DNA of 64,000 nucleotides from Nitrosococcus halophilus Nc 4 (lineage in GTDB: Bacteria; Pseudomonadota; Gammaproteobacteria; Nitrosococcales; Nitrosococcaceae). The position numbers were made by a program, and so were the translations under genes. This document shows, one piece after another, positions 26,155-52,784 of the stretch. Each line of letters begins with the position of its first letter. Position 1 is the first letter of the stretch. The stretch spans positions 1,820,261 through 1,884,260 of the forward strand of contig NC_013960.1 of NCBI RefSeq assembly GCF_000024725.1. Direction: 5' to 3'. Below the pieces are notes generated by a model. The model did no database searches. It was not told where the DNA came from and was given only the letters and a program-made list of their open reading frames with translations.

Positions 26155-27797
26155 GAAGGAGTACAAGGAAGTGCGACGCCCCCCTAGCGAGAGTGCGCAG
26201 CGCAGCGGAGCATCGAGCGCGAGGGCCGCATTACTTGCTGTCGTCGCCGTATTTGGTTCAGACAGCCGAAAGACTGTAGTCATAACCATCTCCCCTCTGT
26301 ATTAGTTTGAAATTTATCCAGTTGGCCGAGATCTTCCCGGCCTTGGCTTTCACATCAAAGGTGCCGCTAGCCCGAATGCTGGCCAGTATCCCAACATGAT
26401 CGCCAGCGTACTTGCCTTGGGGTTGCGAGAGCCTGACGAGATCACCCGTTTGAAATCCCTTTACTCGCCTACACCGCCCCGCCTTGCCGCGAGGAAAGCC
26501 ATATTTGTCGGTTCTGACGACTTGCCTTGTTCCGCGCCCCGTGGCTTTGATATGTAGCGCCCGATAACCTTCAGTTATTGTCACTTGCTCAGCGCTTTCG
26601 CCAACACATGCCGCGTCTATCCAATGGTCTTTGGTATAGCCTTGGCTGATCCTGTTTTTCTTGGTGCGCCCACCAGACCAAAAAGAAGTCGGCAATCCCA
26701 CTGACTGAATAGTGCACCCGATGGCGTAGCGGGTAGCATTGACCGCCGCTGCATCTTTTAGAGGCAGCTTGGATTTGGACTGGATCTGGGTATACCCAAA
26801 CTCGGCCGCCGTTTTGCTGTTCTTTTTTTTGTTGCAGGGCGCGCGGGCCAGGGTTAAATTAGATACCCGATTACTACCCCCCCTCGATCTCGGTATAATA
26901 TGCTCAACCTCTAGCGGGATATCTTTCTTATTGCAATAAGCGCACTTCCTGTCCCACTTCTCTAGCAGATATTCGCGCACCTCATACCCCATCAACTCGC
27001 CCTGCTGATACTCAACGCCGTTAATTTCAGGGTTCTGAATTTTTTGAGTATCAAAGCGCACAGTTTCGATATGACATTCTGAAATGGGAACTCTATCTAG
27101 CAGACGATTAAACCAGCTCGAAACGTTTTCAACCCGCGAGTTTAGCGATGGCGGCAGCCAACCCTTCGGTTTTGTTCTGTTTAGAAATCGTGGCGCACGA
27201 TAGCGGGTCTTTCTGCCTCTACGACCTCGGCGCAAACTACGACGACTAGCCAGCCGCTCACGGATGGCGTACCCGCGATGGGTAAGATTGGCGGCCCATA
27301 ACACCACGCGCCCCTGTTGAGGAAAATTCCCAACTAAAGCCAGCCCGGTTATTTTGCTGCCCGGATCAACCTTAAATTCAACCGGCTGCGGGTTGGGATC
27401 AACCCTATATTTCAGGATGATCGTAAATGGCTGCATCCGATAAACGCCAGCCTTCCCGTCTCGCAACAGCCGTCTTGCCCTTGCTGGGCTGCATGGCATC
27501 AACGGTTTTCTATCAGTGTCTAATACAAAAACTCTATTCATTAGCTTTTGCTACTCTAAAAGTTAGGGTTCTCTCGCCAATGTTTGAAGGGTCGTTCAGT
27601 CTCGGCATTCGCTCCTGTGTCGCTCCGTAGTTCATTGCCTTTGACCTCAGTGCCTGGGGCTGAGAAATGCACCCCAGGGTGAGTCGCTTTCGCTTCAACT
27701 TCAAACGTAGCCCCGAAGGGCTGAGGCTGGTTGAGCCAACCAACTCATTCGGAAAGTTCAGGACGAACTTGGAGAATGAGTTAGGCGACGACTCAAC
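26155..27797 (-). mobile_element. IscB/omega-RNA insertion element, copy 1 (1,643 bp)
   Basis: The block 26155-27797 equals 51142-52784 except for four substitutions that I can see. Both boundaries are sharp, and outside them the sequences differ completely. On the - strand it holds the omega-RNA scaffold, the iscB gene and about 100 GC-rich bases. It has no transposase gene, so it must be moved in trans, by family knowledge by an IS200/IS605 Y1 transposase. No target-site duplication is seen, as expected for that group. It interrupts a TonB receptor gene. The two copies are direct repeats about 25 kb apart. Confidence 0.92.
26258..27541 (-). CDS. iscB: IscB RNA-guided nuclease, copy 1
   Basis: This 427-residue protein has the complete IscB layout. 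The PLMP domain is at residues 1-45 (DRKPLMPCSPARARRLL). RuvC-I is at FKVDPGSKITGLAL with Asp59. An Arg-rich bridge helix lies at about 92-120 (RRSLRRGRRGRK). RuvC-II is at CHIETVRFD with Glu159. The HNH domain has CxxC at 200-203, EHIIPRSRGGSN with His214, and CNKKK at 236-240. RuvC-III is at KDHWIDAAC with His306 and Asp309. The C-terminal domain, by homology target-adjacent-motif reading, runs from about 345 to 427. All expected catalytic residues are present, so it could be active. IscB proteins are Cas9's ancestors and cut DNA using an omega-RNA encoded just upstream of their gene; such a scaffold precedes this gene. It differs from copy 2 at residue 32 (Gly here, Ala there). Confidence 0.95.
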   Translation of the reverse strand: MNRVFVLDTDRKPLMPCSPARARRLLRDGKAGVYRMQPFTIILKYRVDPNPQPVEFKVDPGSKITGLALVGNFPQQGRVVLWAANLTHRGYAIRERLASRRSLRRGRRGRKTRYRAPRFLNRTKPKGWLPPSLNSRVENVSSWFNRLLDRVPISECHIETVRFDTQKIQNPEINGVEYQQGELMGYEVREYLLEKWDRKCAYCNKKDIPLEVEHIIPRSRGGSNRVSNLTLARAPCNKKKNSKTAAEFGYTQIQSKSKLPLKDAAAVNATRYAIGCTIQSVGLPTSFWSGGRTKKNRISQGYTKDHWIDAACVGESAEQVTITEGYRALHIKATGRGTRQVVRTDKYGFPRGKAGRCRRVKGFQTGDLVRLSQPQGKYAGDHVGILASIRASGTFDVKAKAGKISANWINFKLIQRGDGYDYSLSAV

Positions 27798-27813
27798 ATT
27801 CTCTAGCCCGGTG
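27542..27813 (-). ncRNA. Predicted omega-RNA of IscB copy 1 (scaffold plus about 16-nt guide)
   Basis: The 256 bases before iscB are kept in both element copies and fold into nested hairpins. On the - strand GTTGAGTC (element edge) pairs with GGCTCAAC. Inside is AACTCATTC/GAATGAGTT (27742-27750 with 27774-27782), enclosing AAGTTC/GAACTT. Further on are AGCCC/GGGCT with a tetraloop (27709-27722) and CCTGGGG/CCCCAGG (27653-27678). By analogy with known IscB systems the guide is the flanking DNA 5' of the scaffold, here caccgggctagagaat (27813 down to 27798), which is receptor coding sequence for TGLEN. The RNA ends and the guide length are not determined. Confidence 0.75.
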
Positions 27814-28292
27814 GCTTGCTGGTTTATTATCCTTAAGCCGTTGTAGCGGTAGTTGTTGAAATTATTCAAATTTAAGCCACGGATGGCCAGATTGGTAAAT
27901 GCACCTGGATTGACGGCGGAGGAGGTCACGCTGGCATCGAGTCGATCCATCGCACCGATGTCATTAAAAGATTGATTGAAAAATAACTCCCATGGCGCTA
28001 CTTTGACTGAAAATGGCGTATCCAACAGTGGTTGATCACCAAAACCTGCTAAGGCAGAATCTTTTGCCTTGTAGCCTTGGCTTGCGCCTTCTGCCTCAGT
28101 TTCGGAGGTGACGGTCACCATTGGCAATCTCATCTCTTCTGCTTGTGTCGGCTCCTCGGCACCGGTTTGCTGGGCATGGGCCTGTCCAGCAAACGCTAAC
28201 CCAAGCAGTGCATAAGGCAGCGAAAGGGAAAATAGGGTGCGTTGGAGGCGAATAAAATTCTTGGTCATTTTTTTGGGGGTTTTAGTCTTCAT
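27798..28292 (-). pseudogene. TonB-dependent siderophore receptor, 5' part (split by IscB element)
   Basis: This codes for the first 165 residues of a receptor: a signal peptide (about residues 1-40, LPYALLGLAFAGQAHAQ), a TonB-box-like region (MVTVTSETEAEG) and the first half of the plug (LLDTPFSVKVAPWELF, NLAIRGLNLNNFN, RYNGLRIINQQ). It stops in mid-plug at the codons for GLEN, where the IscB element begins. Continued reading into the element gives about 87 unrelated residues translated from the omega-RNA region before a stop near 27534. The rest of the receptor is at 24475-26154. The gene is non-functional unless the element is excised. Confidence 0.9.
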
Positions 28293-28407
28293 TTTGGTTT
28301 TTATGGTCGAAAGTTGTACAGAGCTTCCTAGTTAGGTTAAATGCAGCGAAACGGCAGCCGGTGCAGATGAATCTGTCGCGGTGATTGAAAAACGGGACAA
28401 CTCCAGC

Positions 28408-28426
28408 CAGCCTTCTCAGAAGGCTG
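28408..28426 (-). terminator. Candidate transcription terminator hairpin
   Basis: The perfect inverted repeat cagccttctcagaaggctg lies 16 bp after the stop of the exported chelatase-like gene. The T-run (GTTTTTC on the - strand) comes only about 15 bases after the stem, so a Rho-independent terminator is plausible but not typical. Confidence 0.4.
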
Positions 28427-28441
28427 ACTCTATCGCCCCCT

Positions 28442-30124
28442 TCAATGAGAAGTACTGTGGTGGTCTACCGCAGCTTCGGTTAATTGTCCCTTAGCGCCTG
28501 CCTTGAGGACGGCGATGCCTTCCCGAAGGCTCTTCTCTACCCAGCGGGTGAAGTTAGGATGCGGTATTAAGCCTTGTCCATTCATCACATACTCCAACCC
28601 GTCCAGATATGTCCCATAGGAGCCTGAACCGTAAAGCCGATTGGAAATGACGATGGCTTGGCCACCATTATTCGCCTGTTCGATAAAGGCGCGGATCTCG
28701 CGTAGGGCTTCGGCCCGCTTGTCGGGCCAGTCCTCCCGCAGGCTCATGGCGCGGATGTCACGGAAAGGCGCCGGGAGTATGGCTTTGATAGTGGCGATGT
28801 TATGCTCGGTGATGAGGGCAAGGTCGGCCGCATTTGCCTTGTCACTTCTGCTACCGTGGGAGAGGAGAAGGATGCTTTCTTGCGAGGGATCTTGGCTCAC
28901 CTCCAGTATCCGGTCCTTGAGGATTTCCGAGATCAAGGGATCGGGCTGATAGCCGCCTGTGGTCACAAAACGGACGGAGGTGCGCACGCGCTCAGGCACT
29001 CCGCCATGGTTGTGGGCCGGTGGAGCCATGCGGAGCCCAAGAATATAGTCGCTCGCCTCGCGGAAATGATGGGACATGGCGTAGAGGCGCAAAAAGACCC
29101 CATGGCGCACCCCCGCAGCCTCTAGCTCGTTCACCGCTTGGCCAATAGCGAAAGGGCTTGCCATGCCGAAGGCGAAGGCGGTGGGATAACGCCTCACCAT
29201 GTCTGGCATGGCGGCGATGATGCCGTCATTGTAGGGCGCGGTTGAGCCATGGGGCATGATGATGAAGCCGATAGTGTCTTTGGTCACCGGGACATGCCTA
29301 TTGATCATACGCCGCAGCCAGGTGCGCACTGCCGAGTGAGGCATGACGCTTTCGGCAATATGGATATTGGCGTGGGTATAGCGCCGCTTTAGCATCGTTT
29401 CAAGCGACATATTGGGCGTAAATTTGAGGCCGACGACCGAAGGGATAATGAGGGTGCGGCCCGCCTCGGCGAACCGGTTCACGAGTGTCGCCGTCTCGGC
29501 CTCCGCAGCCTCTGCCTCTGGACCTCCTGCTGTTCTGGAATAGGTGAGCGCAACCTCGGTTTCGGCAAAGGAAACGAAGGGGCGGATATCGTCCAGTAGA
29601 CGCTCGCCGAGCGATCGCAAGGTCGCGGCGCCTCCGGTATCGCCGGCCCCCGAAAGCCATAGCACCAGCCGTTCTGCTGCCGGCGTTTTGCTCACCGAGC
29701 GGATGCGGTCGAGCAGTATCTCTCGGAGCAGATAGCTTTCTCCGAGAGCCGGCGTCCAGGTGAGCACAGCGGGGGCCATGGCAGTCTCGATTTGGCTGCG
29801 GAAAAGCCCGAGGAGATGATCGGCCTCCGAGACGAAAAGAGGAATGGCGATGACCTTACCCACGCCATGCTCATGGAGAAAGGCCCGGGCCGCTTCCATA
29901 TAGGCGGCATAGCCGTTCTCAATACCCTGATAGTCGGGTCCGATGAGCAAGAGTTTTACCGGATAGTCCGGGTCTAGGTCCGCGACGGTAGCCGCAAGCT
30001 CCTGGTTGCCGACGGCCCCCCGGTCCATGGCGACGACCAGGACGCCGATCCGCTCTGAAGCGCTGGTGAGAGGAGGAAAAATGCACAAGATAAACAAGAA
30101 TAACCACCGGAGCATCACTTTCAT
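28442..30124 (-). CDS. Exported protein with four CbiX/sirohydrochlorin-chelatase-like repeats
   Basis: This 560-residue protein has a signal peptide (residues 1-22, LRWLFLFILCIFPPLTSAS). The rest reads as four class II chelatase half-units, each starting with a hydrophobic strand and a loop where CbiX proteins have HGS. Unit 1 has VLVVAMDRG (no His). Unit 2 has VLWLSGAGD (no His). Unit 3 has FIIMPHGSTAPYNDG. Unit 4 has ILLLSHGSRSDKANA. A second His is seen in PLFVSEADHLLG (unit 1) and YAMSHHFREAS (unit 3). Known CbiX enzymes are cytoplasmic and insert cobalt or iron into sirohydrochlorin; a periplasmic four-unit version must do something else, perhaps binding or remodelling tetrapyrroles. 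It follows a His-rich small gene and a haem-type receptor gene. The ribosome site is AAGAGG. Function is unknown. Confidence 0.8.
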   Translation of the reverse strand: MKVMLRWLFLFILCIFPPLTSASERIGVLVVAMDRGAVGNQELAATVADLDPDYPVKLLLIGPDYQGIENGYAAYMEAARAFLHEHGVGKVIAIPLFVSEADHLLGLFRSQIETAMAPAVLTWTPALGESYLLREILLDRIRSVSKTPAAERLVLWLSGAGDTGGAATLRSLGERLLDDIRPFVSFAETEVALTYSRTAGGPEAEAAEAETATLVNRFAEAGRTLIIPSVVGLKFTPNMSLETMLKRRYTHANIHIAESVMPHSAVRTWLRRMINRHVPVTKDTIGFIIMPHGSTAPYNDGIIAAMPDMVRRYPTAFAFGMASPFAIGQAVNELEAAGVRHGVFLRLYAMSHHFREASDYILGLRMAPPAHNHGGVPERVRTSVRFVTTGGYQPDPLISEILKDRILEVSQDPSQESILLLSHGSRSDKANAADLALITEHNIATIKAILPAPFRDIRAMSLREDWPDKRAEALREIRAFIEQANNGGQAIVISNRLYGSGSYGTYLDGLEYVMNGQGLIPHPNFTRWVEKSLREGIAVLKAGAKGQLTEAAVDHHSTSH

Positions 30125-30198
30125 ACCTCTTTTGAAGGGACCAAATTAAGGTTTCCCTCTTGTTCAATTTCTGCTGTAAAACAATGGGGGTGATTTAA

Positions 30199-30489
30199 CT
30201 AATGCCGGCGTGACTTTACTCCAACCGACAGCAGGCTCTCATGAGAATGCCAATTTCTCCCGGTGCGGCGCTGCCAGTATTCAAGGAGGTGTAAATAGGC
30301 TTTGCGGCTTTCCGAGTCGTTTTGAACGAGGGGGTGTTCGCTCAGCAAGTGCAAGTGATGCACAATGGCCGAGGCCAGGTGGGGGCAGGAATGATGGGTA
30401 TAACGGCTCATGAGACAAGAGGCCGTTGCCTGGAGATGGGTGAGACCCCGGATTAAGGTATTGGGGGAAGATATTTTATGATTAGCCAT
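30199..30489 (-). CDS. Small His-rich hypothetical protein
   Basis: This 96-residue protein has 13 histidines, including THHSCPHLA, VHHLHLL and NWHSHE, and two cysteines. I see no signal peptide or membrane segment. It is likely a real gene: GAGGAG lies nine bases before the ATG, and it sits in line between the haem-type receptor (264 bp upstream) and the exported chelatase-like gene (74 bp downstream), all on the - strand. His-rich composition fits binding of metal or haem, but I recognise no family. The 263 bases between it and the receptor hold no gene that I can support. Confidence 0.6.
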   Translation of the reverse strand: MANHKISSPNTLIRGLTHLQATASCLMSRYTHHSCPHLASAIVHHLHLLSEHPLVQNDSESRKAYLHLLEYWQRRTGRNWHSHESLLSVGVKSRRH

Positions 30490-30752
30490 GATGCGCGCTC
30501 CTCATTTTGGGCGTTAGGATGGAATTAAAAAGGGTCTGGAAGGGCAGACTGCGCCAAAAAAGCAAGTTACGGAGAAGAAGGACCGTTTGTTTCAAGCGCC
30601 TGGAAATGATTTCCGGAGGCGCTAAACGATGGAGGGAGGTGGGTCCTACTTGTTTCATTGAATTGCGGAGTCCTTGAGTACCCTGCCAGACCAAAACTTG
30701 AAAAACTGTTTTTATCTCAGATTTGCTTATATATTCTTTTGATGATGGAGGC

Positions 30753-32783
30753 TTAAAATTGGTAGGTGAGTGCCACTTTGAAATTACGCCCAGCCTCCTC
30801 GATGACTGAAAGATGACGTCTGTAAGCTTTATCGGTCAGGTTGTCGATAGCGAAATCCACCCGTAAACCCTTGAGGCCAGCAGAAGGAGGCAACCAGCTA
30901 GCGTACAGGTCATACACGCTATAGCCAGGGGTTTCCAGCACTCCTGGAGGAACTCGATCCTGCCGAGCGACAAAACGGCCCCGCCCGCCGAGGACAAATC
31001 CTAACCGAGAGAAGCGCCAGCCCAGATCGACCACTCCCTTGTCAGGTTGCACATTGGTGAGCGGCAAGCCGGTATTGTCGTCTTCACCGCGAGTGCGGCC
31101 AAAGCTGGCCCGAGCGAAAAAGCGGCTAGTGTCATAATGGATAGCCGCTTCGAAACCGTGAAGACGCGCCTGATTGAGATTGGCGTTTTGAGTAGTGCCG
31201 GCGAGAATATCGACTCTCAGATCGATGAAATCCTCGGCTTTAGTATCGAAGTAGGTGAATTCCAGATTTAGCCGATCCGCTGCCGCCAGTACTCCCTCCC
31301 AAGCGCTCCGGAAACCGGTTTCCCAGGTGTAAACTGTTTCCGGTTTGAGGGTTGGATTGGGGATGAAGAAGTTATCGGGGAAGCGGCCTGGAACCCCCCG
31401 AAAGTGGAGTCCTTCGGTGAGGCGCTCGGGCAGCGTGGGGGCGCGAAACGCCTTGCCGTAACTGCCCCATAGTTTGAGCCAGGAGGTCAGATGGAATATC
31501 CCGCCAATACGGGGGGAGAGGGCATCGTCGGTGGTGCTCTGGCCTTGCCCCGTCTCTAGCTCCAAAGTGTAGCGGTCATAGCGTAGCGCCGGAATGAGGC
31601 TTAGGTATTGACCGAGGGCGATCTCATCTTGGAGGTAAAATCCCCAGACATCGCTTTCCGCCTTGGGAAAGGAGGGCCGGGGCTCGCCGTTTTCCCGGCC
31701 TTCCTCTTCATCCTTGAAGTAATCCACCCCAAAAGTGAGTGTTTGTCCCAAAAAAGCCATGGGACCGGCAAGATCCATACTATTTTGGAGCTTAAATCCG
31801 GTGGTGAAAAACTCGCTGGTGGTTTGTCTACCGCTTTCCAGACGCCTTCGGCTATCGCGCAGCTCGGTACGGTAGGCATTGAGCTTGGGTTTGAGCCAAG
31901 GATGGGCTGGATCGTCGTAGCTGTACTGCAGGGTGTAGGTGCGGCGTTCGATATCGGTGGTGGCGTTTTCGTTGGTGCCACTCGACACTGTTTGGGGATT
32001 GGCGGGAAAAACCCCTTCGGTATTGAAGTAATCACCTCCAATGCGCAACTGATGGGCTCCAGGAAGATAGTTCAAGCGGACGAGGCCGGAAAGGTTCTCC
32101 GCAGCCGAGCTATCTAGCTCCTGGCCACTGCCCAAAGTGAGATCGCCAGAGTCCCGGTAGGCAAAATTACCCAGGAAATCCCAGTCGGCGGCACGCCCAA
32201 ATAAGGTAGCACTGGTTGACCCCTCGTCGTTGACACTTTGGTAGCCGCCCTTAAGCCGCGCGCCAAAGCGCTCGCCGGGGGCGAGGAAGTCGCTCGCCTC
32301 TCGGGTGGTCATGGCCACCACGCCGCCAAGGGCGCCACTGCCATAAAGAGCCGAGGCCGATCCGCGCAGGACTTCAATCTGTTTAAGTAAATCCGGTTCG
32401 ATAAAAAAACGGCCTAGATGACCGACACTGAAATTCTGCCGGGCGCCGTCGATAGTGGTCAGGATGCGTTCGCTGCTGAGACCGCGAATGGTAATGGTTT
32501 CGCCGATAGGTCGCGGTCCGGAGGCAAAATCGATGTTCGGCAAGACTTGCAAGAGATCGTCCATACTCTGGGCCTGCCGGCGCATGATCTGCTCGCTATC
32601 CAAAACACTTACCGAAGCAGGCAATTCAGCCAAGGGGCGTTCGGTCTGGGTTGCAATAACAGTCACCGGATCGAGAACATGGTTTTCTACATCCAGAGAG
32701 GTATCCGCGAGTGCTTTGGCGCCTATTCCACTGCATAGAAGAGGGATCATCGCCATCTCCGCACATCTTATTTCTTTGTTCAT
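30753..32783 (-). CDS. TonB-dependent haem/haemoglobin-type receptor
   Basis: This 676-residue receptor has an N-terminal export signal ending near AKALADTS, a TonB box region (DPVTVIATQTERP), a plug (about 55-165, SVLDSEQIMRRQAQSMDDLL, then GSASALYGSGALGGVVAM, the form typical of haem/lactoferrin-type receptors) and a barrel ending in ALTYQF. The haem-receptor markers FRAP (FRAPTLPERL) and an NPNL-like NPTL (IPNPTLKPE) are both seen in the extracellular-loop region between about residues 455 and 495. A strong Fur box lies about 155 bp upstream. It heads a likely operon with the His-rich small gene and the exported chelatase-like gene. Haem as substrate is a family-based inference. Confidence 0.87.
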   Translation of the reverse strand: MNKEIRCAEMAMIPLLCSGIGAKALADTSLDVENHVLDPVTVIATQTERPLAELPASVSVLDSEQIMRRQAQSMDDLLQVLPNIDFASGPRPIGETITIRGLSSERILTTIDGARQNFSVGHLGRFFIEPDLLKQIEVLRGSASALYGSGALGGVVAMTTREASDFLAPGERFGARLKGGYQSVNDEGSTSATLFGRAADWDFLGNFAYRDSGDLTLGSGQELDSSAAENLSGLVRLNYLPGAHQLRIGGDYFNTEGVFPANPQTVSSGTNENATTDIERRTYTLQYSYDDPAHPWLKPKLNAYRTELRDSRRRLESGRQTTSEFFTTGFKLQNSMDLAGPMAFLGQTLTFGVDYFKDEEEGRENGEPRPSFPKAESDVWGFYLQDEIALGQYLSLIPALRYDRYTLELETGQGQSTTDDALSPRIGGIFHLTSWLKLWGSYGKAFRAPTLPERLTEGLHFRGVPGRFPDNFFIPNPTLKPETVYTWETGFRSAWEGVLAAADRLNLEFTYFDTKAEDFIDLRVDILAGTTQNANLNQARLHGFEAAIHYDTSRFFARASFGRTRGEDDNTGLPLTNVQPDKGVVDLGWRFSRLGFVLGGRGRFVARQDRVPPGVLETPGYSVYDLYASWLPPSAGLKGLRVDFAIDNLTDKAYRRHLSVIEEAGRNFKVALTYQF

Positions 32784-32957: not shown

Positions 32958-32987
32958 GTTTAGTAAATCAATGCCAGTGTGTGAAGG

Positions 32988-33218: not shown

Positions 33219-33241
33219 CTTGCATGTGGAAAGGAATGCAA

Positions 33242-36295: not shown

Positions 36296-36313
36296 TGCTA
36301 ATGATAGTTATTT

Positions 36314-45286: not shown

Positions 45287-46776
45287 AGCAATAGCTCCTT
45301 ATCAGGCACCGGGGCGCCGATCCCGATGAGAGTCAGGGGCGTCTGGGCGATGAGACCGAGGACGACGGCCATTAAGGCCAGCAGGAGGGCTGACCATTCC
45401 ATAAACCAAGGTACGGGACGGTAATTGGCTGTACTGGGGACTTGGGCGAAGGCGCGGGCCAATACCCGAAAGACATAACCGGCGGCGAGCAAACCGCCGA
45501 GCACAATAATGAAGGCCCACCCCCATTGGTCGCTGGCAATAGCCGCGGTAAGCAAAGACCATTTGGCCAGGAAACCGCCGCTGGGCGGCAGCCCCATGAG
45601 GCTTACTCCCGCCAGCCCAAAGGCAAAGAGGGTCACGGGCAAGTGCTGGCTGATGCCGTCTAAGTCTTGGATGCGATCGTGTCGCAGGGCATACAGCACG
45701 GTGCCGGCGGCTAAAAACATGCCCCCTTTAGCAAGGCCATGGGCTAGGGCGTGATAAAGGCTACCGCTCCAAGCGGTGAAGGCAGTGGCCGTCTCTTGGG
45801 TCAAGGGAAAAACCAGAAACAGATAACCTAACTGAGCCACGGTGGAGTAAGCCACAAGGAGCTTGAGGCGCTGTGTCTGCAGGGCCTGGAGAGAACCCCA
45901 AAGGATGGCGAAGGCACCCAACAGCCCTAACAGATTGGCGGCTGCTGCGGTGGTAGTCTCCGGAAAAACGGTAAACCACAGTCGTAGCAAGAGATAAAAG
46001 GTGGCTTTGACCACCAACGCCGAGAGGACGCTGCTAACGGGCGTAGGCGCATTAGCATGGGCCGGAGGCAGCCAGAAATGGAGGGGGAAAAGGGCCGTTT
46101 TCAATAACAAGCCCACACCCATCATTGTAAGGGCTGCCCCCGGTAAGGGCCCGGCCTGAATGAGCTGCCCCAGGGAAACCATATCCACCGTATGGTAGCC
46201 GGCATAGAGCAAACCCACGCCTAGTAGATAAAACAGGGACCCTAGGAGGCTGACCAGCAGATAACGGATGGCGGCGCCTAGGGCTGCTGCCTGCCCTGAA
46301 AGGCCCACCAGGGCAACAGAGGCTAAGCCGATTAACTCCAAGGTGACATAGGCATTAAAGACATCGGCGGTGAGAAAAAGGCCATTGAGGGCGGCCCATA
46401 GAAACAGCCATAGGGGCCAGAAATAATCCCGTTCATGGGCATGATGGGGATCTTCCTTCGAGCCAAAATAACCTACCCCATAGAGGCTGGTAAAAACTCC
46501 CACCGAAGCCGCCAGAAGGAGCATGAGTGCGCTCAAGCCATCTATATAGAACTCAATGCCGAGGGGCGCTCCCCAACCACCGATAGGGTAACGCTGGGGG
46601 CCCTCTGCGAGCACTTGTTGAGTGAGGGCAATCCCCAATAACAGCACACCCATAGCGGTCACTAGGCCAATCAGGCTTTTGTAGCGGGGCACGGTGAAGG
46701 CAAGGAGCGCCCCTACCAGGGGCAGAACCATGATCCAGGCTGGCCAGTGGGCGCTGAAATTAGGGGTTTCCATCAA
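45283..46776 (-). CDS. mrpD: Mrp-type antiporter subunit D (first copy)
   Basis: This 497-residue member of the NuoL/M/N - MrpD family has LLKTALFPLHFWLPPAHANAP, VAYSTVAQLGYLFLV and about 14 helices. It starts with two ATG codons (46776 and 46773). A 163-bp gap with a dispersed repeat separates it from mrpC, the only sizeable gap in the operon. Together with its two neighbours it gives three large antiporter-like subunits and no full-length MrpA. Confidence 0.9.
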   Translation of the reverse strand: MMETPNFSAHWPAWIMVLPLVGALLAFTVPRYKSLIGLVTAMGVLLLGIALTQQVLAEGPQRYPIGGWGAPLGIEFYIDGLSALMLLLAASVGVFTSLYGVGYFGSKEDPHHAHERDYFWPLWLFLWAALNGLFLTADVFNAYVTLELIGLASVALVGLSGQAAALGAAIRYLLVSLLGSLFYLLGVGLLYAGYHTVDMVSLGQLIQAGPLPGAALTMMGVGLLLKTALFPLHFWLPPAHANAPTPVSSVLSALVVKATFYLLLRLWFTVFPETTTAAAANLLGLLGAFAILWGSLQALQTQRLKLLVAYSTVAQLGYLFLVFPLTQETATAFTAWSGSLYHALAHGLAKGGMFLAAGTVLYALRHDRIQDLDGISQHLPVTLFAFGLAGVSLMGLPPSGGFLAKWSLLTAAIASDQWGWAFIIVLGGLLAAGYVFRVLARAFAQVPSTANYRPVPWFMEWSALLLALMAVVLGLIAQTPLTLIGIGAPVPDKELLL

Positions 46777-46797
46777 GACCCAAAGGACATGAAGGTG

Positions 46798-46933
46798 AAG
46801 GAATCTCGCTCATTTGGGAAAAGCTGAAGGAAATGAGTATCTCTAATGAAGCAATCCATTCTAATCCATTTAAGTTTTTGATTTTTTTGTGCTCTTTGTG
46901 CCTTTGTGGTGATTTTATAAATCGTTCGGGCTA
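46798..46933. repeat. 136-bp dispersed intergenic repeat, copy B
   Basis: Homologous in the same orientation to 20108-20243, with tctctaatgaagcaa and gtgctctttgtgcctttgtggt as the best-kept parts. It fills the gap between the mrpC stop and the first mrpD start, inside the antiporter operon. Confidence 0.8.
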
Positions 46934-46938
46934 AGGGT

Positions 46939-47256
46939 TCATTCCGAGGGGGACTCATCCTCAAGTTCTGCCCGGCCAGTGATGGCTTTAAATCGGGTGG
47001 CAAGAGCCAGCCCTAGCAACATGGAAGCCGAGGCGACTACAATTCCGGTAAGTACCATCGCTTGAGGAACGGGATCGGGCATCCCTTCGGGGGTGCGGGA
47101 GGCAGCCGCCACATAGACCAAAAAAACCCCGCTGGCCATGATGTTGAAGGCCAGAATTTTGCGCAGCAGATGAGGGTAGGCCAAGAGGGCGTATAGGCCG
47201 ATGATAAACAGCCCAATTCCAGTCAAGATATAGAGTAAAACGGGCGTTAGCATCAT
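46939..47256 (-). CDS. mrpC: Mrp antiporter subunit C (NuoK-like)
   Basis: This 105-residue protein has three helices, with LLYILTGIGLFIIGLYALL at the N terminus and the MrpC/NuoK block DPVPQAMVLTGIVVASASML. I start at the first of two adjacent ATG codons (47256), which overlaps the mrpB stop; the frame continues upstream but is not membrane-like there. It is a small structural subunit of the cation/proton antiporter. The acidic tail (ELEDESPSE) is cytoplasmic by the usual topology. Confidence 0.9.
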   Translation of the reverse strand: MMLTPVLLYILTGIGLFIIGLYALLAYPHLLRKILAFNIMASGVFLVYVAAASRTPEGMPDPVPQAMVLTGIVVASASMLLGLALATRFKAITGRAELEDESPSE

Positions 47257-47954
47257 GGCTTTTTTCCTTTGCGTGGTCGGCCACCGGCAAAAAGGGCAGC
47301 CAGGATAACGCCAATGGAAAGGGCGGCGGGAAATTCCAGCCACAAAATTTTGGTTTTCATCCACTCAGGAGGGGTTTCCAAGAGGGGGCCTCCGGCAACA
47401 AGGGGGATGATGGCCACGGTGAGGAAGATGGCGATGCCTAATGCAGCCGCAAAACGTAGCCAGATCCTCAAGGGGAATAGGATTTCATGGAGGTTAGAGA
47501 GGATGAGGAGTACGCCGATAGTCCCCAGCAGAGCCCCGCCCTGAAAAGCACCGCCGGCAGCGCTTCCCCCGGCCCAGACCAGATAAAGGGAGGCGAGGGT
47601 AATCAGAGGAATCACCAACCGCAGAAAATCGAGCAGGATAGGATCAGACGGTTTCCTGGGAGGGGGGAGGAAAGCTTCTCCTAGGGACCAGACCCCGATC
47701 AGGGCAAGGAGCAAGACGGTAAGTTCCAGCAAGGTGTCGTAATCACGAAATATCAGCAATACCGCCGTCACCGGATTGATTGCCCCGCCGGGTTCTTTGG
47801 CGGCGAGGACCATGGGCTCCAGGCCCGGTGTGACGGGGGCGAGTTCCATGATTCCCCCTACCAGGATAGCCATGAGGATCGATAGCAACGAAAATAACAG
47901 GGCCCGATAGGGGTCTATCCCCGTTTCAATTGACGATCTAGGCTTCGGGGTCAT
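47253..47954 (-). CDS. mrpB: Mrp antiporter subunit B with MbhE-like N-terminal region
   Basis: This 233-residue protein joins two pieces that are often separate. Residues 1-100 resemble the C-terminal part of MrpA, called MbhE in hydrogenases (NPVTAVLLIFRDYDTLLEL). Residues about 105-220 are the MrpB domain (FLRLVIPLITLASLYLVW, then GGAFQGGALLGTIGVLL). It overlaps its neighbours on both sides. This fusion supplies one of the MrpA pieces that the operon otherwise lacks. Confidence 0.87.
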   Translation of the reverse strand: MTPKPRSSIETGIDPYRALLFSLLSILMAILVGGIMELAPVTPGLEPMVLAAKEPGGAINPVTAVLLIFRDYDTLLELTVLLLALIGVWSLGEAFLPPPRKPSDPILLDFLRLVIPLITLASLYLVWAGGSAAGGAFQGGALLGTIGVLLILSNLHEILFPLRIWLRFAAALGIAIFLTVAIIPLVAGGPLLETPPEWMKTKILWLEFPAALSIGVILAALFAGGRPRKGKKP

Positions 47955-48228
47955 GGTGAAGTTCTGAGTCCCTTTGCTGGGGTTGTCGCTCGCCCATTCG
48001 GCGCAAGGTGACCAGCAAGGCGGTGCCTGACAGACCCGCGCCGATAACCGCCTCCGCTAGGGCGATATCAATAGCGGCCAGCCGAACCCAGACCAATGCC
48101 ATGATGAGGCCAAAGGCGATAAACAACACGATGGCCCGGAACAGATCCGGATGGGTGAGCAATTGCCAAGCCAGCCAGAGCAGGGTGAGTGCCAGCAGTC
48201 CATCAATGCTCCACTGCAAGAAGCTCAT
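47938..48228 (-). CDS. MbhD-like (DUF4040) antiporter subunit
   Basis: This 96-residue protein has three helices and matches the DUF4040/MbhD segment found in the middle of MrpA or as a separate subunit: FRAIVLFIAFGLIMALVWVR, then AAIDIALAEAVIGAGLSGTA. It overlaps mrpG (ATGA) and mrpB. It is one of the stand-alone pieces replacing long MrpA in this operon. Confidence 0.85.
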   Translation of the reverse strand: MSFLQWSIDGLLALTLLWLAWQLLTHPDLFRAIVLFIAFGLIMALVWVRLAAIDIALAEAVIGAGLSGTALLVTLRRMGERQPQQRDSELHHDPEA

Positions 48229-48539
48229 GGTTTGCTCCTGGGCTGGATACCTCGGTTTAATGCGGCTCGCGCAATGAGAAAGCTGGTGGTGGCGCTAGAG
48301 GCGATTACCAATAGCCAAATTAAAATCAATTTGAGCGCGCCAGTTAAAGTTTCAGCCTGTAGTACCAGACCGGCGATGACCAGCCCAAGGCCCAGGTTAT
48401 CCGCTTTGGTGAGGGCATGGAGGCGGCTATAGATGTCGGGAAACCGCAACAAACCAATCGTGCCCACGACAAAAAAGAGGACCCCAGATAGGATAAAGGT
48501 AGCGCCTAGCCAATGGCTGAGGGACATCAGGCTAGTCAT
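48225..48539 (-). CDS. mrpG: Mrp antiporter subunit G
   Basis: This 104-residue protein has three helices and the MrpG signature LLRFPDIYSRLHALTKADNLG. It overlaps mrpF by 8 bases and the MbhD-like gene by ATGA. Confidence 0.92.
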   Translation of the reverse strand: MTSLMSLSHWLGATFILSGVLFFVVGTIGLLRFPDIYSRLHALTKADNLGLGLVIAGLVLQAETLTGALKLILIWLLVIASSATTSFLIARAALNRGIQPRSKP

Positions 48540-48816
48540 GGGTTTCGGGTTCTATACCCCAGATACGTTGCACGAAGGCGATGCCGGCGATGGCTGCCAG
48601 GAGAGCAAAAACTAAAGCCACGTCCTGCAAAGCAGGGGTATCCGTTGCTTCGCCCAATAGCAGTAAAATAGCCACGCTGGTGGTGCCAAAAAGTTGTGCT
48701 GTGAGCATCCGGTCCGCCGCCGTAGGCCCTCGCACTATCCGGATGAGGCCTACCATGATGGTGACTATTAGAATTTCACTAAGAACCAACTCCAAATCAA
48801 ATAGTGCCATTCCCAT
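48532..48816 (-). CDS. mrpF: Mrp antiporter subunit F
   Basis: This 94-residue protein has three helices and the MrpF signature RIVRGPTAADRMLTAQLFGTT. It overlaps mrpE by 20 bases. An in-frame ATG two codons later (48810) is equally possible as the start. Confidence 0.92.
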   Translation of the reverse strand: MGMALFDLELVLSEILIVTIMVGLIRIVRGPTAADRMLTAQLFGTTSVAILLLLGEATDTPALQDVALVFALLAAIAGIAFVQRIWGIEPETHD

Positions 48817-49354
48817 TCCCGGTGTTCTCGTTCGTCTCGATATTAGTGTGCTTTAAACGGAACAGGGTTGCAATGCGGGTTTCAAGGGTCTGGACTTCGT
48901 CGATAATCGGCGCCTGGGTGTCTAAGACATGGAGAGTGAGGCGATGGCGATGGATGCGTGCCACTAGGGTACCGGGCAACAGATTGATGGTATAGACAAG
49001 CAGGGTGCGAGCGGGAGTCTCCGGGGGGAGTTGGGTTGAAAATTCCACCAGGCCAGGGTTGAGGGGTAACCGCGGCTGGAGTACCCGTTTCGCCACATCG
49101 ATGCCAGCGCGCAGTGATTGACACAAAAAAAAGAGGATAAAACGTAGTAAACTAAAATAATTTAAACGGAAAAATTTTCTACGGGAAAGCTGTAGGCTGA
49201 CATAGGTCGTTGCTAAGACAGCAGGTATTCCCACTCCCCAGGAGGTGGGATCGCCGCCAGTTAGGATCCACCATAGCCCGGCGAAGAGTAAAATTCGCCC
49301 GAGGACGGGGAACAAGAAGGCTTGATCGCGTTTACTTTGCGAGTGTAGTTTCAC
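48797..49354 (-). CDS. mrpE: Mrp antiporter subunit E
   Basis: This 185-residue protein has two or three N-terminal helices, the MrpE block FILFFLCQSLRAGIDVAKRVL and LVYTINLLPGTLVARIHRHR, and a soluble tail. It is the first gene of the operon mrpE-F-G-mbhD-B-C-D-D-(N-like). By family knowledge the complex exchanges Na+ or K+ for protons and helps in salt or alkaline stress; the ion here is unknown. The promoter should lie in the 490-bp region upstream. Confidence 0.9.
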   Translation of the reverse strand: MKLHSQSKRDQAFLFPVLGRILLFAGLWWILTGGDPTSWGVGIPAVLATTYVSLQLSRRKFFRLNYFSLLRFILFFLCQSLRAGIDVAKRVLQPRLPLNPGLVEFSTQLPPETPARTLLVYTINLLPGTLVARIHRHRLTLHVLDTQAPIIDEVQTLETRIATLFRLKHTNIETNENTGNGNGTI

Positions 49355-49846
49355 TAGTTATCCAGTAGTCACCATGGGGTTGTGAAGGGGGTGTTTTTAT
49401 TTACCAATCCTCCGCCCAAAGCCCCTTCCTTCAGGGAGGGGATGTAGGGCGGTTCTGTTCGTGTACAATGTTCTTTGTTGGTTGTGCTGTTGTTGCACAT
49501 CTCCTCCTGTCTAGCTTTAAGCGGGGGCAGGGTTGAAGTAAGGTGTTTTTCAGAGACATCCCGCTCGGGCATGGGCGTCCGCACTAGGGAATCCTCTTCC
49601 TTAAAGGGAGAGGTGGATGTCAAGAGGCCCATCTTCCAGGTGCCCTTTATTTTGAATGTATTCAAAGATAAGTTAAGCATGGTCTATGATTAACAACAAG
49701 ATGGGTAATGATTTATGGCACATCCTCCTCTCTGGCCGTAGCGTGGTCAATTTCCAGTTTGCGGCTCCCCAATTCTCGACTTCTCGCTTAGGTTAGCTTT
49801 TAAGCAGAGATCTACCCAATAATATTTAACAGGCAGGTCAACTGGC
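49355..49846. other. 490-bp intergenic region with two TnpB-end-like hairpins
   Basis: No supported gene. Two similar hairpins lie in the same orientation. At 49412-49452 an outer stem CCGCCC/GGGCGG encloses CCCCTTCCTTCAGGGAGGGG followed by ATGT. At 49593-49613 CCTCTTCCTTAAAGGGAGAGG is followed by TGGATGTCAAG. Both resemble the hairpin-plus-GATGT ends that I know from tnpB-bearing IS200/IS605 elements, so the region may hold transposon remnants. It also carries the outward promoters for mrpE and the Usp gene. Confidence 0.45.
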
Positions 49847-50782
49847 ATGAAACAAATTAAGAGCATCCTTTTAGCCCTGGACGGCAAATATCACCGGCAG
49901 GCATTGATAGCCCAGGTGGCAGCGGTGGCTGGAGAGGGTGGTGCCCAGGCAACTTTATTGAGCGTTTTGGAATCGCCGCCAAGCAAGCAGGAGGTGGGAA
50001 TAGAACCGTCGGAACTCCAGCGGCTGATGACCGAAGATCGAGTGGAGCAGTTAAAGGATATCGCCTCGGAACTTGAAAAGCATGGCCTTCAAGTCACTGT
50101 CAAGGTCTCCCAAGGGAAGGCCTTTATGGAAATCATTCGGGAAGCTTTGAAAGGAAATTATGATCTGGTCATGAAGCCCGCGGAGAGCGAGTCTACCACC
50201 AGGAGCATTTTGTTTGGCAGCACGGATATGCAGCTTTTGCGGATGTGTCCCTCTCCGATGTGGGTCATTAAACCGACTCACCATACGCAAATGGGCAAAA
50301 TTATGATTGCCGTAGATTTGCTTCCTTTTGATGAAGAAAAAAGCGCGCTTGCTGACAAAGTGATTCAATGGGGGAAAGTGATTGCTCATTTGGCGAATGC
50401 CGAGCTTCACGTGCTTCATGTCTGGGAACTCTATGGGGAAACGACTTTGCGAGGAAGAACGGTTTTGGCGGATACCGTCGATAACCTGGTGCGAGAAGAG
50501 GAGCGGCGGCATCGCCAATGGCTGGATGAAGCACTTTCAAGAAATGGGGTAGAGCAGAAACAAGTGCAGATACATTTTTATAAAGGTGAGGCGAAAAAAT
50601 TAATCCCTACCGTAGCCAATAGAACGGACAGTGATCTATTGATCATGGGGACTGTTGGGCGAACCGGGATACCGGGCTTTTTTATTGGCAATACCGCTGA
50701 TTCGGTGCTTCACCAAGTGGACTGTTCAATTCTTGCCATCAAGCCGGACGGCTTTGTGACACCAGTGAAGGTCGATCGTTAA
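49847..50782 (+). CDS. Tandem-domain universal stress protein (UspE-like)
   Basis: This 311-residue protein has two UspA domains, about 1-145 and 150-305. The second has the ATP-binding pattern GTVGRTGIPGFFIGNTADSV; in the first the loop is degenerate (KPAESESTTRSILFGSTDMQ). It is a soluble cytoplasmic stress protein. It stands alone between the Mrp operon (divergent) and the second IscB element. Its ATG follows AACAGGCAGG-type sequence, a weak ribosome site. Confidence 0.88.
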   Translation: MKQIKSILLALDGKYHRQALIAQVAAVAGEGGAQATLLSVLESPPSKQEVGIEPSELQRLMTEDRVEQLKDIASELEKHGLQVTVKVSQGKAFMEIIREALKGNYDLVMKPAESESTTRSILFGSTDMQLLRMCPSPMWVIKPTHHTQMGKIMIAVDLLPFDEEKSALADKVIQWGKVIAHLANAELHVLHVWELYGETTLRGRTVLADTVDNLVREEERRHRQWLDEALSRNGVEQKQVQIHFYKGEAKKLIPTVANRTDSDLLIMGTVGRTGIPGFFIGNTADSVLHQVDCSILAIKPDGFVTPVKVDR

Positions 50783-50839
50783 CTCTGTCCTGAAAGACGG
50801 GTAAGCCCTACTTTTTAATTTTTTCGAAGAAGCGTTTTC

Positions 50840-50859
50840 CCTCGGCTTGAAAGCCGAGG
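50840..50859. other. Perfect inverted repeat between the Usp gene and IscB copy 2
   Basis: cctcggcttgaaagccgagg can form an 8-9-bp stem. No T-run follows on either strand, so it is a poor terminator. Its sequence is like hairpins near the ends of tnpB elements. Apart from this and the small frame at 50910, the gap 50783-51141 shows nothing. Confidence 0.4.
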
Positions 50860-50909
50860 CTTGCGTGGCTGTGTTAAAAAGCAGGTAAATAAAGAAGCTA
50901 CAAACTCTC

Positions 50910-51266
50910 GTGGATAGGCACCAAGAGTACAAATTTATTAAAGAGTTTCTGCGGCTTTCACACAAAAAGCGAATTTATTTTGCAATACGAATCTTGGCGC
51001 AATTGGATGAAACCAATTTTTGGTTTCTGTATCGTCAAGAGCTGCGATCGGATCTTTTACTCAGATTCATGGCGCGGGAAATCCAAATGAACAAGAGAGG
51101 TTTGGGTAGGAAAGGCTCGGATAGGCCAAAGGTATTACGTAGAAGGAGTACAAGGAAGTGCGACGCCCCCCTAGCGAGAGTGCGCAGCGCAGCGGAGCAT
51201 CGAGCGCGAGGGCCGCATTACTTGCTGTCGTCGCCGTATTTGGTTCAGACAGCCGAAAGACTGTAG
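50910..51266 (+). CDS. Hypothetical small protein, 3' end overwritten by IscB element
   Basis: This frame starts with GTG. The first 77 residues (helical, charged, e.g. FIKEFLRLSHKKRIYF and FLYRQELRSDLLLRF) come from host DNA; the remaining 41 are translated from the antisense side of the IscB element end. If it is a real gene, its 3' part was displaced by the insertion. No ribosome site is visible and I recognise no family. Confidence 0.3.
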   Translation: MDRHQEYKFIKEFLRLSHKKRIYFAIRILAQLDETNFWFLYRQELRSDLLLRFMAREIQMNKRGLGRKGSDRPKVLRRRSTRKCDAPLARVRSAAEHRARGPHYLLSSPYLVQTAERL

Positions 51267-52784
51267 TCATAACCATCTCCCCTCTGTATTAGTTTGAAAT
51301 TTATCCAGTTGGCCGAGATCTTCCCGGCCTTGGCTTTCACATCAAAGGTGCCGCTAGCCCGAATGCTGGCCAGTATCCCAACATGATCGCCAGCGTACTT
51401 GCCTTGGGGTTGCGAGAGCCTGACGAGATCACCCGTTTGAAATCCCTTTACTCGCCTACACCGCCCCGCCTTGCCGCGAGGAAAGCCATATTTGTCGGTT
51501 CTGACGACTTGCCTTGTTCCGCGCCCCGTGGCTTTGATATGTAGCGCCCGATAACCTTCAGTTATTGTCACTTGCTCAGCGCTTTCGCCAACACATGCCG
51601 CGTCTATCCAATGGTCTTTGGTATAGCCTTGGCTGATCCTGTTTTTCTTGGTGCGCCCACCAGACCAAAAAGAAGTCGGCAATCCCACTGACTGAATAGT
51701 GCACCCGATGGCGTAGCGGGTAGCATTGACCGCCGCTGCATCTTTTAGAGGCAGCTTGGATTTGGACTGGATCTGGGTATACCCAAACTCGGCCGCCGTT
51801 TTGCTGTTCTTTTTTTTGTTGCAGGGCGCGCGGGCCAGGGTTAAATTAGATACCCGATTACTACCCCCCCTCGATCTCGGTATAATATGCTCAACCTCTA
51901 GCGGGATATCTTTCTTATTGCAATAAGCGCACTTCCTGTCCCACTTCTCTAGCAGATATTCGCGCACCTCATACCCCATCAACTCGCCCTGCTGATACTC
52001 AACGCCGTTAATTTCAGGGTTCTGAATTTTTTGAGTATCAAAGCGCACAGTTTCGATATGACATTCTGAAATGGGAACTCTATCTAGCAGACGATTAAAC
52101 CAGCTCGAAACGTTTTCAACCCGCGAGTTTAGCGATGGCGGCAGCCAACCCTTCGGTTTTGTTCTGTTTAGAAATCGTGGCGCACGATAGCGGGTCTTTC
52201 TGCCTCTACGACCTCGGCGCAAACTACGACGACTAGCCAGCCGCTCACGGATGGCGTACCCGCGATGGGTAAGATTGGCGGCCCATAACACCACGCGCCC
52301 CTGTTGAGGAAAATTCCCAACTAAAGCCAGCCCGGTTATTTTGCTGCCCGGATCAACCTTAAATTCAACCGGCTGCGGGTTGGGATCAACCCTATATTTC
52401 AGGATGATCGTAAATGGCTGCATCCGATAAACCGCGGCCTTCCCGTCTCGCAACAGCCGTCTTGCCCTTGCTGGGCTGCATGGCATCAACGGTTTTCTAT
52501 CAGTGTCTAATACAAAAACTCTATTCATTAGCTTTCGCTACTCTAAAAGTTAGGGTTCTCTCGCCAATGTTTGAAGGGTCGTTCAGTCTCGGCATTCGCT
52601 CCTGTGTCGCTCCGTAGTTCATTGCCTTTGACCTCAGTGCCTGGGGCTGAGAAATGCACCCCAGGGTGAGTCGCTTTCGCTTCAACTTCAAACGTAGCCC
52701 CGAAGGGCTGAGGCTGGTTGAGCCAACCAACTCATTCGGAAAGTTCAGGACGAACTTGGAGAATGAGTTAGGCGACGACTCAAC
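51142..52784 (-). mobile_element. IscB/omega-RNA insertion element, copy 2 (1,643 bp)
   Basis: Same length and orientation as copy 1 (26155-27797), differing at about four bases: three clustered near 52435 (in the codons for residues 31-32) and one near 52535. Its omega-RNA end lies 3 bp after the stop of the DUF3422 gene, which it leaves intact. Flanks share no sequence with those of copy 1. No transposase gene is present. Confidence 0.92.
51245..52528 (-). CDS. iscB: IscB RNA-guided nuclease, copy 2
   Basis: This 427-residue protein is identical to copy 1 apart from residue 32 (Ala instead of Gly), at the end of the PLMP domain. All RuvC residues (Asp59, Glu159, His306, Asp309) and HNH residues (Cys200, Cys203, His214) are kept, so both copies look intact. 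Because scaffold and protein are the same, the two copies should share RNAs: each IscB could use either guide. The lack of decay suggests recent movement or continued selection. Confidence 0.95.
   Translation of the reverse strand: MNRVFVLDTDRKPLMPCSPARARRLLRDGKAAVYRMQPFTIILKYRVDPNPQPVEFKVDPGSKITGLALVGNFPQQGRVVLWAANLTHRGYAIRERLASRRSLRRGRRGRKTRYRAPRFLNRTKPKGWLPPSLNSRVENVSSWFNRLLDRVPISECHIETVRFDTQKIQNPEINGVEYQQGELMGYEVREYLLEKWDRKCAYCNKKDIPLEVEHIIPRSRGGSNRVSNLTLARAPCNKKKNSKTAAEFGYTQIQSKSKLPLKDAAAVNATRYAIGCTIQSVGLPTSFWSGGRTKKNRISQGYTKDHWIDAACVGESAEQVTITEGYRALHIKATGRGTRQVVRTDKYGFPRGKAGRCRRVKGFQTGDLVRLSQPQGKYAGDHVGILASIRASGTFDVKAKAGKISANWINFKLIQRGDGYDYSLSAV

What the first reader, a model, noticed from the sequence alone, without database searches (positions are those of the whole stretch)
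26155..52784. Two intact, almost identical IscB RNA-guided nuclease elements in one 64-kb window
Both 1,643-bp copies carry a full-length iscB with every RuvC and HNH catalytic residue and a structured upstream RNA region. Neither has a transposase gene, so they are minimal elements. Two intact copies with different flanks give a natural pair for defining ends, omega-RNA and target rules of this lineage.
Basis: partly seen in the sequence, partly recalled or inferred. Interest (0 to 1): 0.8.

Follow-up and report, generated by a model that had tools for sequence, protein, structure and literature searches.

The report
IscB elements sharing ends with TnpB
Two near-identical copies of a small mobile DNA element, carrying an RNA-guided DNA-cutting enzyme related to the ancestor of Cas9, sit in a marine ammonia-oxidising bacterium; they use the same DNA end as elements carrying the ancestor of Cas12, but the bases beside that end differ according to which enzyme is carried, which offers a natural way to separate what the mover prefers from what the cutter needs.

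Summary
Two 1,643-bp copies (4 mismatches) each hold an intact iscB and an upstream HEARO-like omega RNA, and no transposase. They belong to a family: the genome has six open full-length copies, a seventh broken by a 90-bp insert, fragments, and a separate 53%-identical iscB. Two sister genomes have one each. Empty sites in sister genomes fix the ends to the base, with no target duplication. Copy 1 splits a TonB-dependent receptor gene.

Beyond the finding: read from the other strand, the iscB 3' end is the same sequence (81-91 of 110 bases) as the left end of transposase-less tnpB elements and their ORF-less derivatives in the genus. So both nucleases would take guide and TAM from the same respective sides. 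At this end base -4 is C for both. Base -3 is C in 11 of 12 iscB insertions but 6 of 25 tnpB insertions (p=2e-4), where A dominates. As an IscB TAM this is 3' NNGG, within reach of the published NWRGNA. My best account: each nuclease filters where the shared end persists. No Y1 transposase with these ends was found in four genomes, so the mover is unknown. Nothing was tested at the bench.

The parts
26155..27797 (-). IscB element copy 1 (c1), 1643 bp, no target-site duplication
   Evidence: repeat; ends common to c1-c5; reading across the two flanks restores one receptor frame LENKARVEILKG, and homologues printed beside it show no gap by eye
26258..27541 (-). iscB, 427 aa, RuvC and HNH residues present
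   Evidence: AlphaFold model mean pLDDT 83.3, best PDB matches are IscB-omega RNA complexes, TM-score (query) 0.47-0.59
27542..27797 (-). omega RNA (HEARO-like) scaffold, first base = first base of the element
   Evidence: HEARO 27562-27797, model 1-211, E 6.7e-12, below gathering score; covariation
27798..27813 (-). predicted 16-nt guide (flanking DNA, end of the upstream half of the TonB receptor gene)
   Evidence: inference from IscB biology; 16 nt is given as the optimal OgeuIscB guide length in PMC13180657 (passage)
26149..26154 (-). predicted TAM AAGGCG at the 3' side of the empty site
   Evidence: flank statistics
26155..26178 (+). shared left end in transposase sense, GAAGGAGTACAAGGAAGTGCGACG
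   Evidence: pattern search, 66 sites in four genomes, 0 in the backward control; 86 of 110 bases identical to the tnpB-type element L221
27798..28292 (-). upstream half of the TonB-dependent receptor gene interrupted by copy 1 (plug domain, 23.4 bits against a cut-off of 23.9)
24475..26154 (-). downstream half of the same receptor gene (TonB-dependent receptor barrel, 149.6 bits)
51142..52784 (-). IscB element copy 2 (c2), 1643 bp
51245..52528 (-). iscB of copy 2, 427 aa, intact frame
52529..52784 (-). omega RNA scaffold of copy 2 (one base different from copy 1)
52785..52800 (-). predicted 16-nt guide of copy 2 (end of the DUF3422 gene at 52788-54077 and the bases after its stop)
   Evidence: inference
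51136..51141 (-). predicted TAM TACGTA of copy 2 (the one IscB flank of 12 without G at position 3)
51142..51165 (+). shared left end of copy 2 in transposase sense
   Evidence: G000:C2:1871402-1871425
52785..64000 (.). first 11,216 bp of a 21,129-bp unit that occurs twice in exact tandem, bounded by iscB element pieces
   Evidence: 0 mismatches over 21,129 bp; window tail identical to start of unit

Best explanation
These are non-autonomous IS200/IS605-type elements. Each carries IscB and its omega RNA on the strand opposite to the one the transposase would act on. The DNA next to the omega RNA supplies the guide; the DNA next to the other end supplies the TAM. When the element leaves a site, or a sister chromosome lacks it, the restored empty site holds guide match plus TAM, IscB cuts it, and repair copies the element back. 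Mobility depends on a transposase supplied from elsewhere that also moves the tnpB elements with the same end. Shown: gene integrity, RNA family, exact ends without duplication, the shared end with tnpB elements, and the different base at -3. Inferred: RNA expression, cutting, TAM, homing and the common mover. I further propose that the mover needs mainly C at -4, and that each nuclease decides which insertions persist: IscB those with GG at TAM positions 3-4 (CCNN in transposase sense), TnpB those with C-N-T-T.
For: IscB and HEARO identity. Exact empty sites: the L139 site against G002, G000 and G003, the c6 site against G003, and the c5 site against G003 and G002 show no gap at the junction. 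Copy 1 restores the receptor frame. Of 14 tnpB sites queried four were aligned: three have no gap at the junction itself, the fourth is ambiguous because of a CAAT repeat. Shared end: c4 against L222 91, c4 against L221 90, c1 against L221 86, c1 against L222 81 of 110 identical bases, alignment scores 39-65 against shuffle maxima of 8-11; at the other end both have a stem followed by GGCGA..ACTC(C)AA. Flanks: -4 C in 12 of 12 IscB, 22 of 25 tnpB; -3 C in 11 of 12 against 6 of 25 (p=2e-4); -3 A in 0 of 12 against 15 of 25 (p=3.7e-4); -2 T in 5 of 12 against 22 of 25 (p=0.006). Same 24-base end, different flank: IscB CCAG and CCCT; tnpB CATT, CTTT, CATC. Published IscB TAMs fit: OgeuIscB NWRRNA (PMC11900391, passage), NWRGNA more optimal and fourth-position G needed by the engineered forms (PMC13180657, passages).
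Against: No transposase with these ends was found in four genomes, so a common mover is not shown. C at -4 (G at TAM position 4) is common to both kinds of element, so only position 3 sets IscB apart; the A expected at TAM position 6 is present in only 6 of 12 (5 of 9 in the genus). The -2 and -1 positions differ weakly within the genus (5 of 9 against 22 of 25, p=0.061; 5 of 9 against 20 of 25, p=0.2). Copy 2 itself has C, not G, at TAM position 3. ORF-less elements resemble the tnpB set (-3 C in 3 of 27), which could equally mean that the mover prefers C-N-T-T and that IscB elements have a mover of their own. Ends of L038, L039 and L311 were placed by motif, not by an empty site, and over 110 bases L311 is no more like c1 or c4 than shuffles are, so outside the genus the likeness is limited to the 24-base pattern.
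Confidence: 0.7

Rival explanations
1. The flank difference is made by transposases, not nucleases: iscB and tnpB elements are moved by two related transposases, or one transposase reads the two elements differently through the dissimilar other end.
For: The other ends differ (CTCAAC against CTCCAA). ORF-less elements, which carry no nuclease gene, share the tnpB-like flank. Published statements hold that the TAM equals the transposase's preferred site (PMC11870625 passage; PMC8612924 passage).
Against: The 24-base left end with its internal AAGG is identical in some iscB and tnpB elements with different flanks. ORF-less elements keep the tnpB-type right end and could be served by TnpB in trans, so they are not a nuclease-free baseline.
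Confidence: 0.3
2. The base difference is a small-sample effect or reflects shared ancestry of few iscB insertions.
For: Only 9 iscB insertions within the genus and 12 in all; several copies are nearly identical in sequence.
Against: Each is a different genomic site with unrelated flanks; p=2e-4 for 12, 0.0012 for the 9 in the genus; the three outside the genus all have CC.
Confidence: 0.12
3. The copies are inactive relics spread by recombination rather than transposition.
For: No transposase in the family; one broken copy and several fragments; a 21-kb tandem duplication bounded by iscB pieces shows that copies do recombine.
Against: Six open full-length copies, three 99.5-99.8% alike at sites with unrelated flanks, clean base-exact insertions, iscB frame kept open in lineages 76-87% identical in DNA.
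Confidence: 0.1

Closest known systems
IscB-omega RNA systems (OgeuIscB, TbaIscB, OrufIscB)
   Same: RuvC plus HNH protein, upstream HEARO-type RNA, TAM pattern with purine then G at positions 3-4; best structural matches 8csz, 9k30, 9liq
   Different: Shorter protein (427 aa), 15-21% identity to the solved IscBs in the fold alignments and only moderate whole-chain TM-scores, HEARO score below the Rfam threshold, predicted TAM NNGG
HEARO elements (Rfam RF02033)
   Same: Full-length covariance match starting at the first base of the element
   Different: 62.9 bits against a gathering score of 83; the second iscB lineage of the genome (L014) reaches 118
IS200/IS605 tnpB-only elements (often called IS1341-like; name recalled)
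   Same: Same left end, no duplication, guide side and TAM side the same
   Different: Carry tnpB on the other strand; flank C-N-T-T instead of CCNN
Geobacillus elements in which TnpB and IscB were reported to share a TnpA in trans (Meers et al. 2023, recalled; paper not held)
   Same: As I recall, IscB and TnpB elements with related ends in one genome
   Different: I cannot say from a held text whether a difference of flank between the two nucleases was described there

Membership tests
IscB (OMEGA nuclease) | RuvC split by HNH, family profile match over the whole model | tested here: met
   NF040563 431.9 bits, 314/314
IscB (OMEGA nuclease) | Catalytic residues of RuvC-I/II/III and HNH present | tested here: met
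   D59, E159, H214, H306, D309 conserved in 33 sequences; roles recalled
IscB (OMEGA nuclease) | C-terminal domain that reads the TAM | tested here: inconclusive
   C-terminal strands modelled with pLDDT about 86-91 for residues 361-420 and whole-protein fold match to IscB complexes; domain not matched separately
IscB (OMEGA nuclease) | RNA-guided DNA cutting | not testable with these tools
   needs expression and cleavage assay
HEARO RNA RF02033 | Covariance match at Rfam gathering score | tested here: not met
   62.9 bits against 83; E 6.7e-12 and full length. Described as HEARO-like
IS200/IS605 element | Insertion without target duplication | tested here: met
IS200/IS605 element | Subterminal hairpins at both ends | tested here: inconclusive
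   one example per end and element kind: clear stem at the omega-RNA end (-15.3 and -13.2 kcal/mol); at the shared end the predicted folds (-8.6, -8.5) differ from each other and do not form the GTGC..GCAC stem that the sequence suggests; no shuffles
IS200/IS605 element | Y1 transposase within the element | tested here: not met
   no hit inside any element scanned; non-autonomous at most
IS200/IS605 element | Movement by a Y1 transposase in trans | not testable with these tools
   no matching transposase element found in four genomes

The most novel reading that the evidence does not exclude
Two unrelated RNA-guided nucleases ride on the same transposon end, and the flanking motif follows the nuclease rather than the end. 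Contrary to the usual statement that the TAM equals the transposase's target, the transposase would need little more than one C, and the insertion motif seen in genomes would be largely a record of nuclease-based retention.
Probability: 0.4. Interest if true: 0.75.

Novelty: new member of a known kind. Interest (0 to 1): 0.55.

Why it matters
IscB genes seldom lie beside a transposase (PMC9755519, passages), so how they move and how their TAM relates to their insertion site is poorly fixed. Here one genus holds iscB elements, tnpB elements and ORF-less elements with the same end, with base-exact empty sites in sister genomes. That makes a clean comparison possible: same end, different cargo nuclease, different flank. 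It could separate transposase preference from nuclease TAM without engineering, and it predicts two TAMs that a standard library assay can check.

Tried and rejected
Assigning the right-end match in L015 (5553-5636) to IscB: rejected, it belongs to an ORF-less element of the tnpB type, so it was taken out of the IscB flank list. Counting L037 as an IscB deletion form: rejected, it looks like an IscB left end fused to a tnpB-type ORF-less repeat. Treating GTTGAG as a retained target: rejected by the empty sites. A transposase with matching ends among 17 Y1 matches of the own genome and 19 of three sister genomes: the ends of two element families (L020-L022, L023/L024) were worked out and differ; the others were only scanned for the end motifs, without a match that brackets a tnpA. 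The one motif near a tnpA is in G001, where a 39-residue tnpA remnant lies about 140 bases outside the right end of an ORF-less repeat (L281, L304); I take it as a neighbour, but a decayed former partner is not excluded. The first three-sequence Y1 profile was replaced by one of 22 sequences; its only two hits among the scanned loci, in L305 and L306, lie in loci fetched because a tnpA was there, outside the elements.

Empty-site queries without a usable answer: c3 and c4 had no match in the sister genomes; c2 matched essentially one flank; L138 in the own genome lacks the bases around the junction; c7 aligned in G003 with a 13-base gap beside the junction; c6 against G001 needs several gaps; c37 matched both flanks in G003 with other sequence between. 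Of the tnpB sites, matches seen for L220, L224, L225 and others were not aligned. Plasmid searches gave no close relative of the element. Outside the genus, 13 other genomes of the 369 scanned in the class matched the end pattern with up to 2 mismatches; I inspected five sites in two of them (G255, G288). One site (L311) carried iscB; L323 runs into a contig end. The backward control pattern also gave scattered hits in that scan, so most two-mismatch hits outside the genus are probably chance. L311 ends before its RNA region, so its lack of a HEARO match says nothing.

In one search the ORF-less set of 28 wrongly included L139, an IscB element; one search repeats the test without it (3 of 27). 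tnpB membership there means a sequence signature within 1,700 bases downstream on the element's strand, so some of the 25 are shortened or decayed.
Full report
Observation. The two copies are real: 1,643 bp, 4 mismatches, no gap. Each has a 427-aa iscB that matches the IscB family model over its whole length. A predicted structure (33-sequence alignment, mean pLDDT 83.3) finds the solved IscB-omega RNA-DNA complexes as its best matches (8csz, 9k30, 9liq; whole-chain TM-scores moderate, 0.54-0.59). The region upstream matches the HEARO RNA family from model position 1 to 211, starting exactly at the first base of the element. The score (62.9 bits) is below Rfam's threshold (83). Four relatives in the genus and one outside it (L010, L012, L138, L139; L038) score 50-63, while L039 and the second iscB lineage of the same genome, L014, score 116-118. 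Nine aligned relatives show at least one double change that keeps the pair in 34 of 65 predicted pairs; other pairs are broken in some sequences.

Where it is. The window is 1820261-1884260 of a 4,079,427-base contig; the second contig is 65,833 bases. Parts of 12 kb of the latter match plasmids of Nitrosococcus watsonii and N. oceani at 84-86%, so the genus is Nitrosococcus by inference; the sizes fit N. halophilus Nc4 as I recall. Three sister genomes of the genus are held (G001-G003).

The family. In the own genome the protein search lists 16 places: six full-length open copies (c1-c6), c7 split by a 90-base insert with stops (two rows), L014 at 53%, a copy split by a larger insert (L015, two rows), two 544-base 5' pieces (L016, L017), one short piece (L018) and two weak partial hits that I did not pursue. 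The RNA region finds 11 places. G003 and G001 hold one full-length copy each (L138, L139). c1, c2 and c3 are 99.5-99.8% alike, c4 and c5 99.9%; between groups identity is 76-87%.

Ends. The copies of this lineage in the genus start GTTGAGTCG; c1-c5 and c7 end CTCCTTC. Reading across the flanks of copy 1 restores a single TonB receptor frame (barrel and plug domains)...LENKARVEILKGPSALQAG..., and the uninterrupted homologues printed beside it show no gap there by eye (LEHLERVEILKG in L119-L122, LENVQSVEILKG in L190). The L139 site is empty in G002, G000 and G003, the c6 site in G003 and the c5 site in G003 and G002, aligned without a gap at the junction. The element therefore inserts without duplication, and GTTGAG belongs to it. 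c5 sits at the 3' end of a guanylate kinase gene.

Shared end. A search with the ORF-less element L037 uncovered an abundant repeat in all four genomes: 29 to 52 matches per genome, with only 40 candidates scored in three of the four. Longer members encode TnpB: L222, L224, L225 and L226 full size, L220 and L221 shortened. TnpB of L222 and L226 match NCBIfam guided_TnpB at 336 bits, cut-off 100. In tnpB orientation these elements begin with GAAGGAG, a short inverted repeat and a GACGNCC-like stretch; that is the reverse strand of the iscB 3' end. Over 110 bases c4 shares 91 and 90 with L222 and L221, c1 shares 81 and 86, far above shuffles. The far ends are less alike but both have a stem followed by GGCGA and ACTC(C)AA. 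tnpB insertions are also free of duplication: four of 14 queried sites were aligned, three have no gap at the junction though two of them have small gaps further out, the fourth is ambiguous. The end pattern with up to 2 mismatches occurs at 66 sites in the four genomes and not at all in the backward control. So in both kinds of element the guide would come from one and the same side and the TAM from the other.

Flanks. Of the 66 sites, 60 were in hand: 7 iscB, 25 with a tnpB signature, 28 with neither, of which one (L139) is an iscB element. The iscB list of 12 is c1-c5, c7, L138, L139, c6 (variant end GGAATT, placed by its empty site) and three from other genera placed by motif (L038, L039, L311). 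In transposase sense base -4 is C in 12 of 12 iscB, 22 of 25 tnpB, 24 of 28 others. Base -3 is C in 11 of 12 iscB, 6 of 25 tnpB (p=2e-4) and, without L139, 3 of 27 others (p=2.4e-6). For the nine of the genus against tnpB p=0.0012. Base -3 is A in 0 of 12 iscB and 15 of 25 tnpB. Base -2 is T in 5 of 12 against 22 of 25 (p=0.006); within the genus alone this is weaker (5 of 9, p=0.061). Base -1 is T in 5 of 12 against 20 of 25 (p=0.029; genus p=0.2). Several tests were made without correction; the -3 difference would survive a Bonferroni factor of ten. Elements with the identical 24-base end still differ: iscB CCAG and CCCT; tnpB CATT, CTTT, CATC; others CATC, CATC, CCTT. The end contains AAGG, complementary to CCTT, which would suit the internal guide known from IS608-type elements (recalled); this is suggestive only.

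Mechanism. Turned to the IscB strand, the flank reads NNGG, with A at position 6 in only 6 of 12. Published IscB TAMs are NWRRNA for OgeuIscB (PMC11900391, passages seen), with NWRGNA called more optimal and a fourth-position G needed by engineered OgeuIscB (PMC13180657, passages seen). The fit supports a real TAM. For TnpB the literature I could read says that the TAM is the same motif as the transposase target (PMC11870625 and PMC8612924, passages seen). Here the same end shows two motifs. The simplest account is a transposase with a loose preference and nucleases that decide which insertions last, through cutting of empty sites and repair from the occupied copy. The main rival is that two transposases, or the differing far ends, produce the difference. 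I give the nuclease-filter reading 0.4.

The mover. A profile of Y1 transposases found none inside the elements scanned, nor within the stored flanks (up to 5 kb, often less) of the best 80 of at least 497 related iscB loci. The Y1 genes of the four genomes (17 and 19 matches) showed no such ends where I looked; a tnpA remnant lies about 140 bases outside one ORF-less repeat of G001. Movement in trans is therefore assumed.

Novelty. IscB, HEARO and tnpB elements are known kinds; this is a new family of them. A link of IscB and TnpB through one transposase was reported for Geobacillus as I recall, but that paper is not held, so I cannot claim the shared end as new. My searches of the held library listed no paper whose title or shown start of abstract describes a flank difference between the two nucleases at one end; most subscription papers are missing from it.

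Noticed in passing
window 52785-64000 and G000:C2:1873045-1915302: A 21,129-bp unit occurs twice in exact tandem (0 mismatches), each copy ending in a 544-base iscB element piece joined to a transposase gene that looks IS1-like to the eye; it looks like unequal recombination between iscB copies. A misassembly cannot be excluded.
   Followed up: partly
L013 4250-4340 and L015 about 2220-3595: Two iscB copies only about 80% alike are interrupted at the same TA by a TACCAATTT-ended repeat; in L015 a further transposase-like gene sits inside it.
   Followed up: partly
L037 1666-2089: Chimeric element: IscB omega-RNA-side end joined to a tnpB-type ORF-less repeat, suggesting that ends are exchanged between the two families. 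c6 carries the same variant end.
   Followed up: partly
all four Nitrosococcus genomes: A very abundant ORF-less repeat family derived from tnpB elements, starting TTGGAGTTTCGCCATGACTGA in the L037 orientation, with at least three subtypes of the other end (GAAGGAG, GGAATT, GGAGCC).
   Followed up: partly
G001:C1:1787029-1787624 (L304): A 39-residue tnpA remnant about 140 bases outside the right end of an ORF-less repeat; possibly a trace of a lost transposase partner.
   Followed up: partly
window 1943-3622 and 8416-10095: A 1,680-bp repeat, 99.88% identical, inside large ORFs that look like nonribosomal peptide synthetases; copy 1 of IscB lies near this apparent siderophore cluster and breaks a TonB-dependent receptor gene.
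   Followed up: no
L014 1817-3410: A second, 53%-identical iscB lineage in the same genome with a HEARO RNA well above the Rfam threshold (118 bits); its ends were not determined.
   Followed up: no
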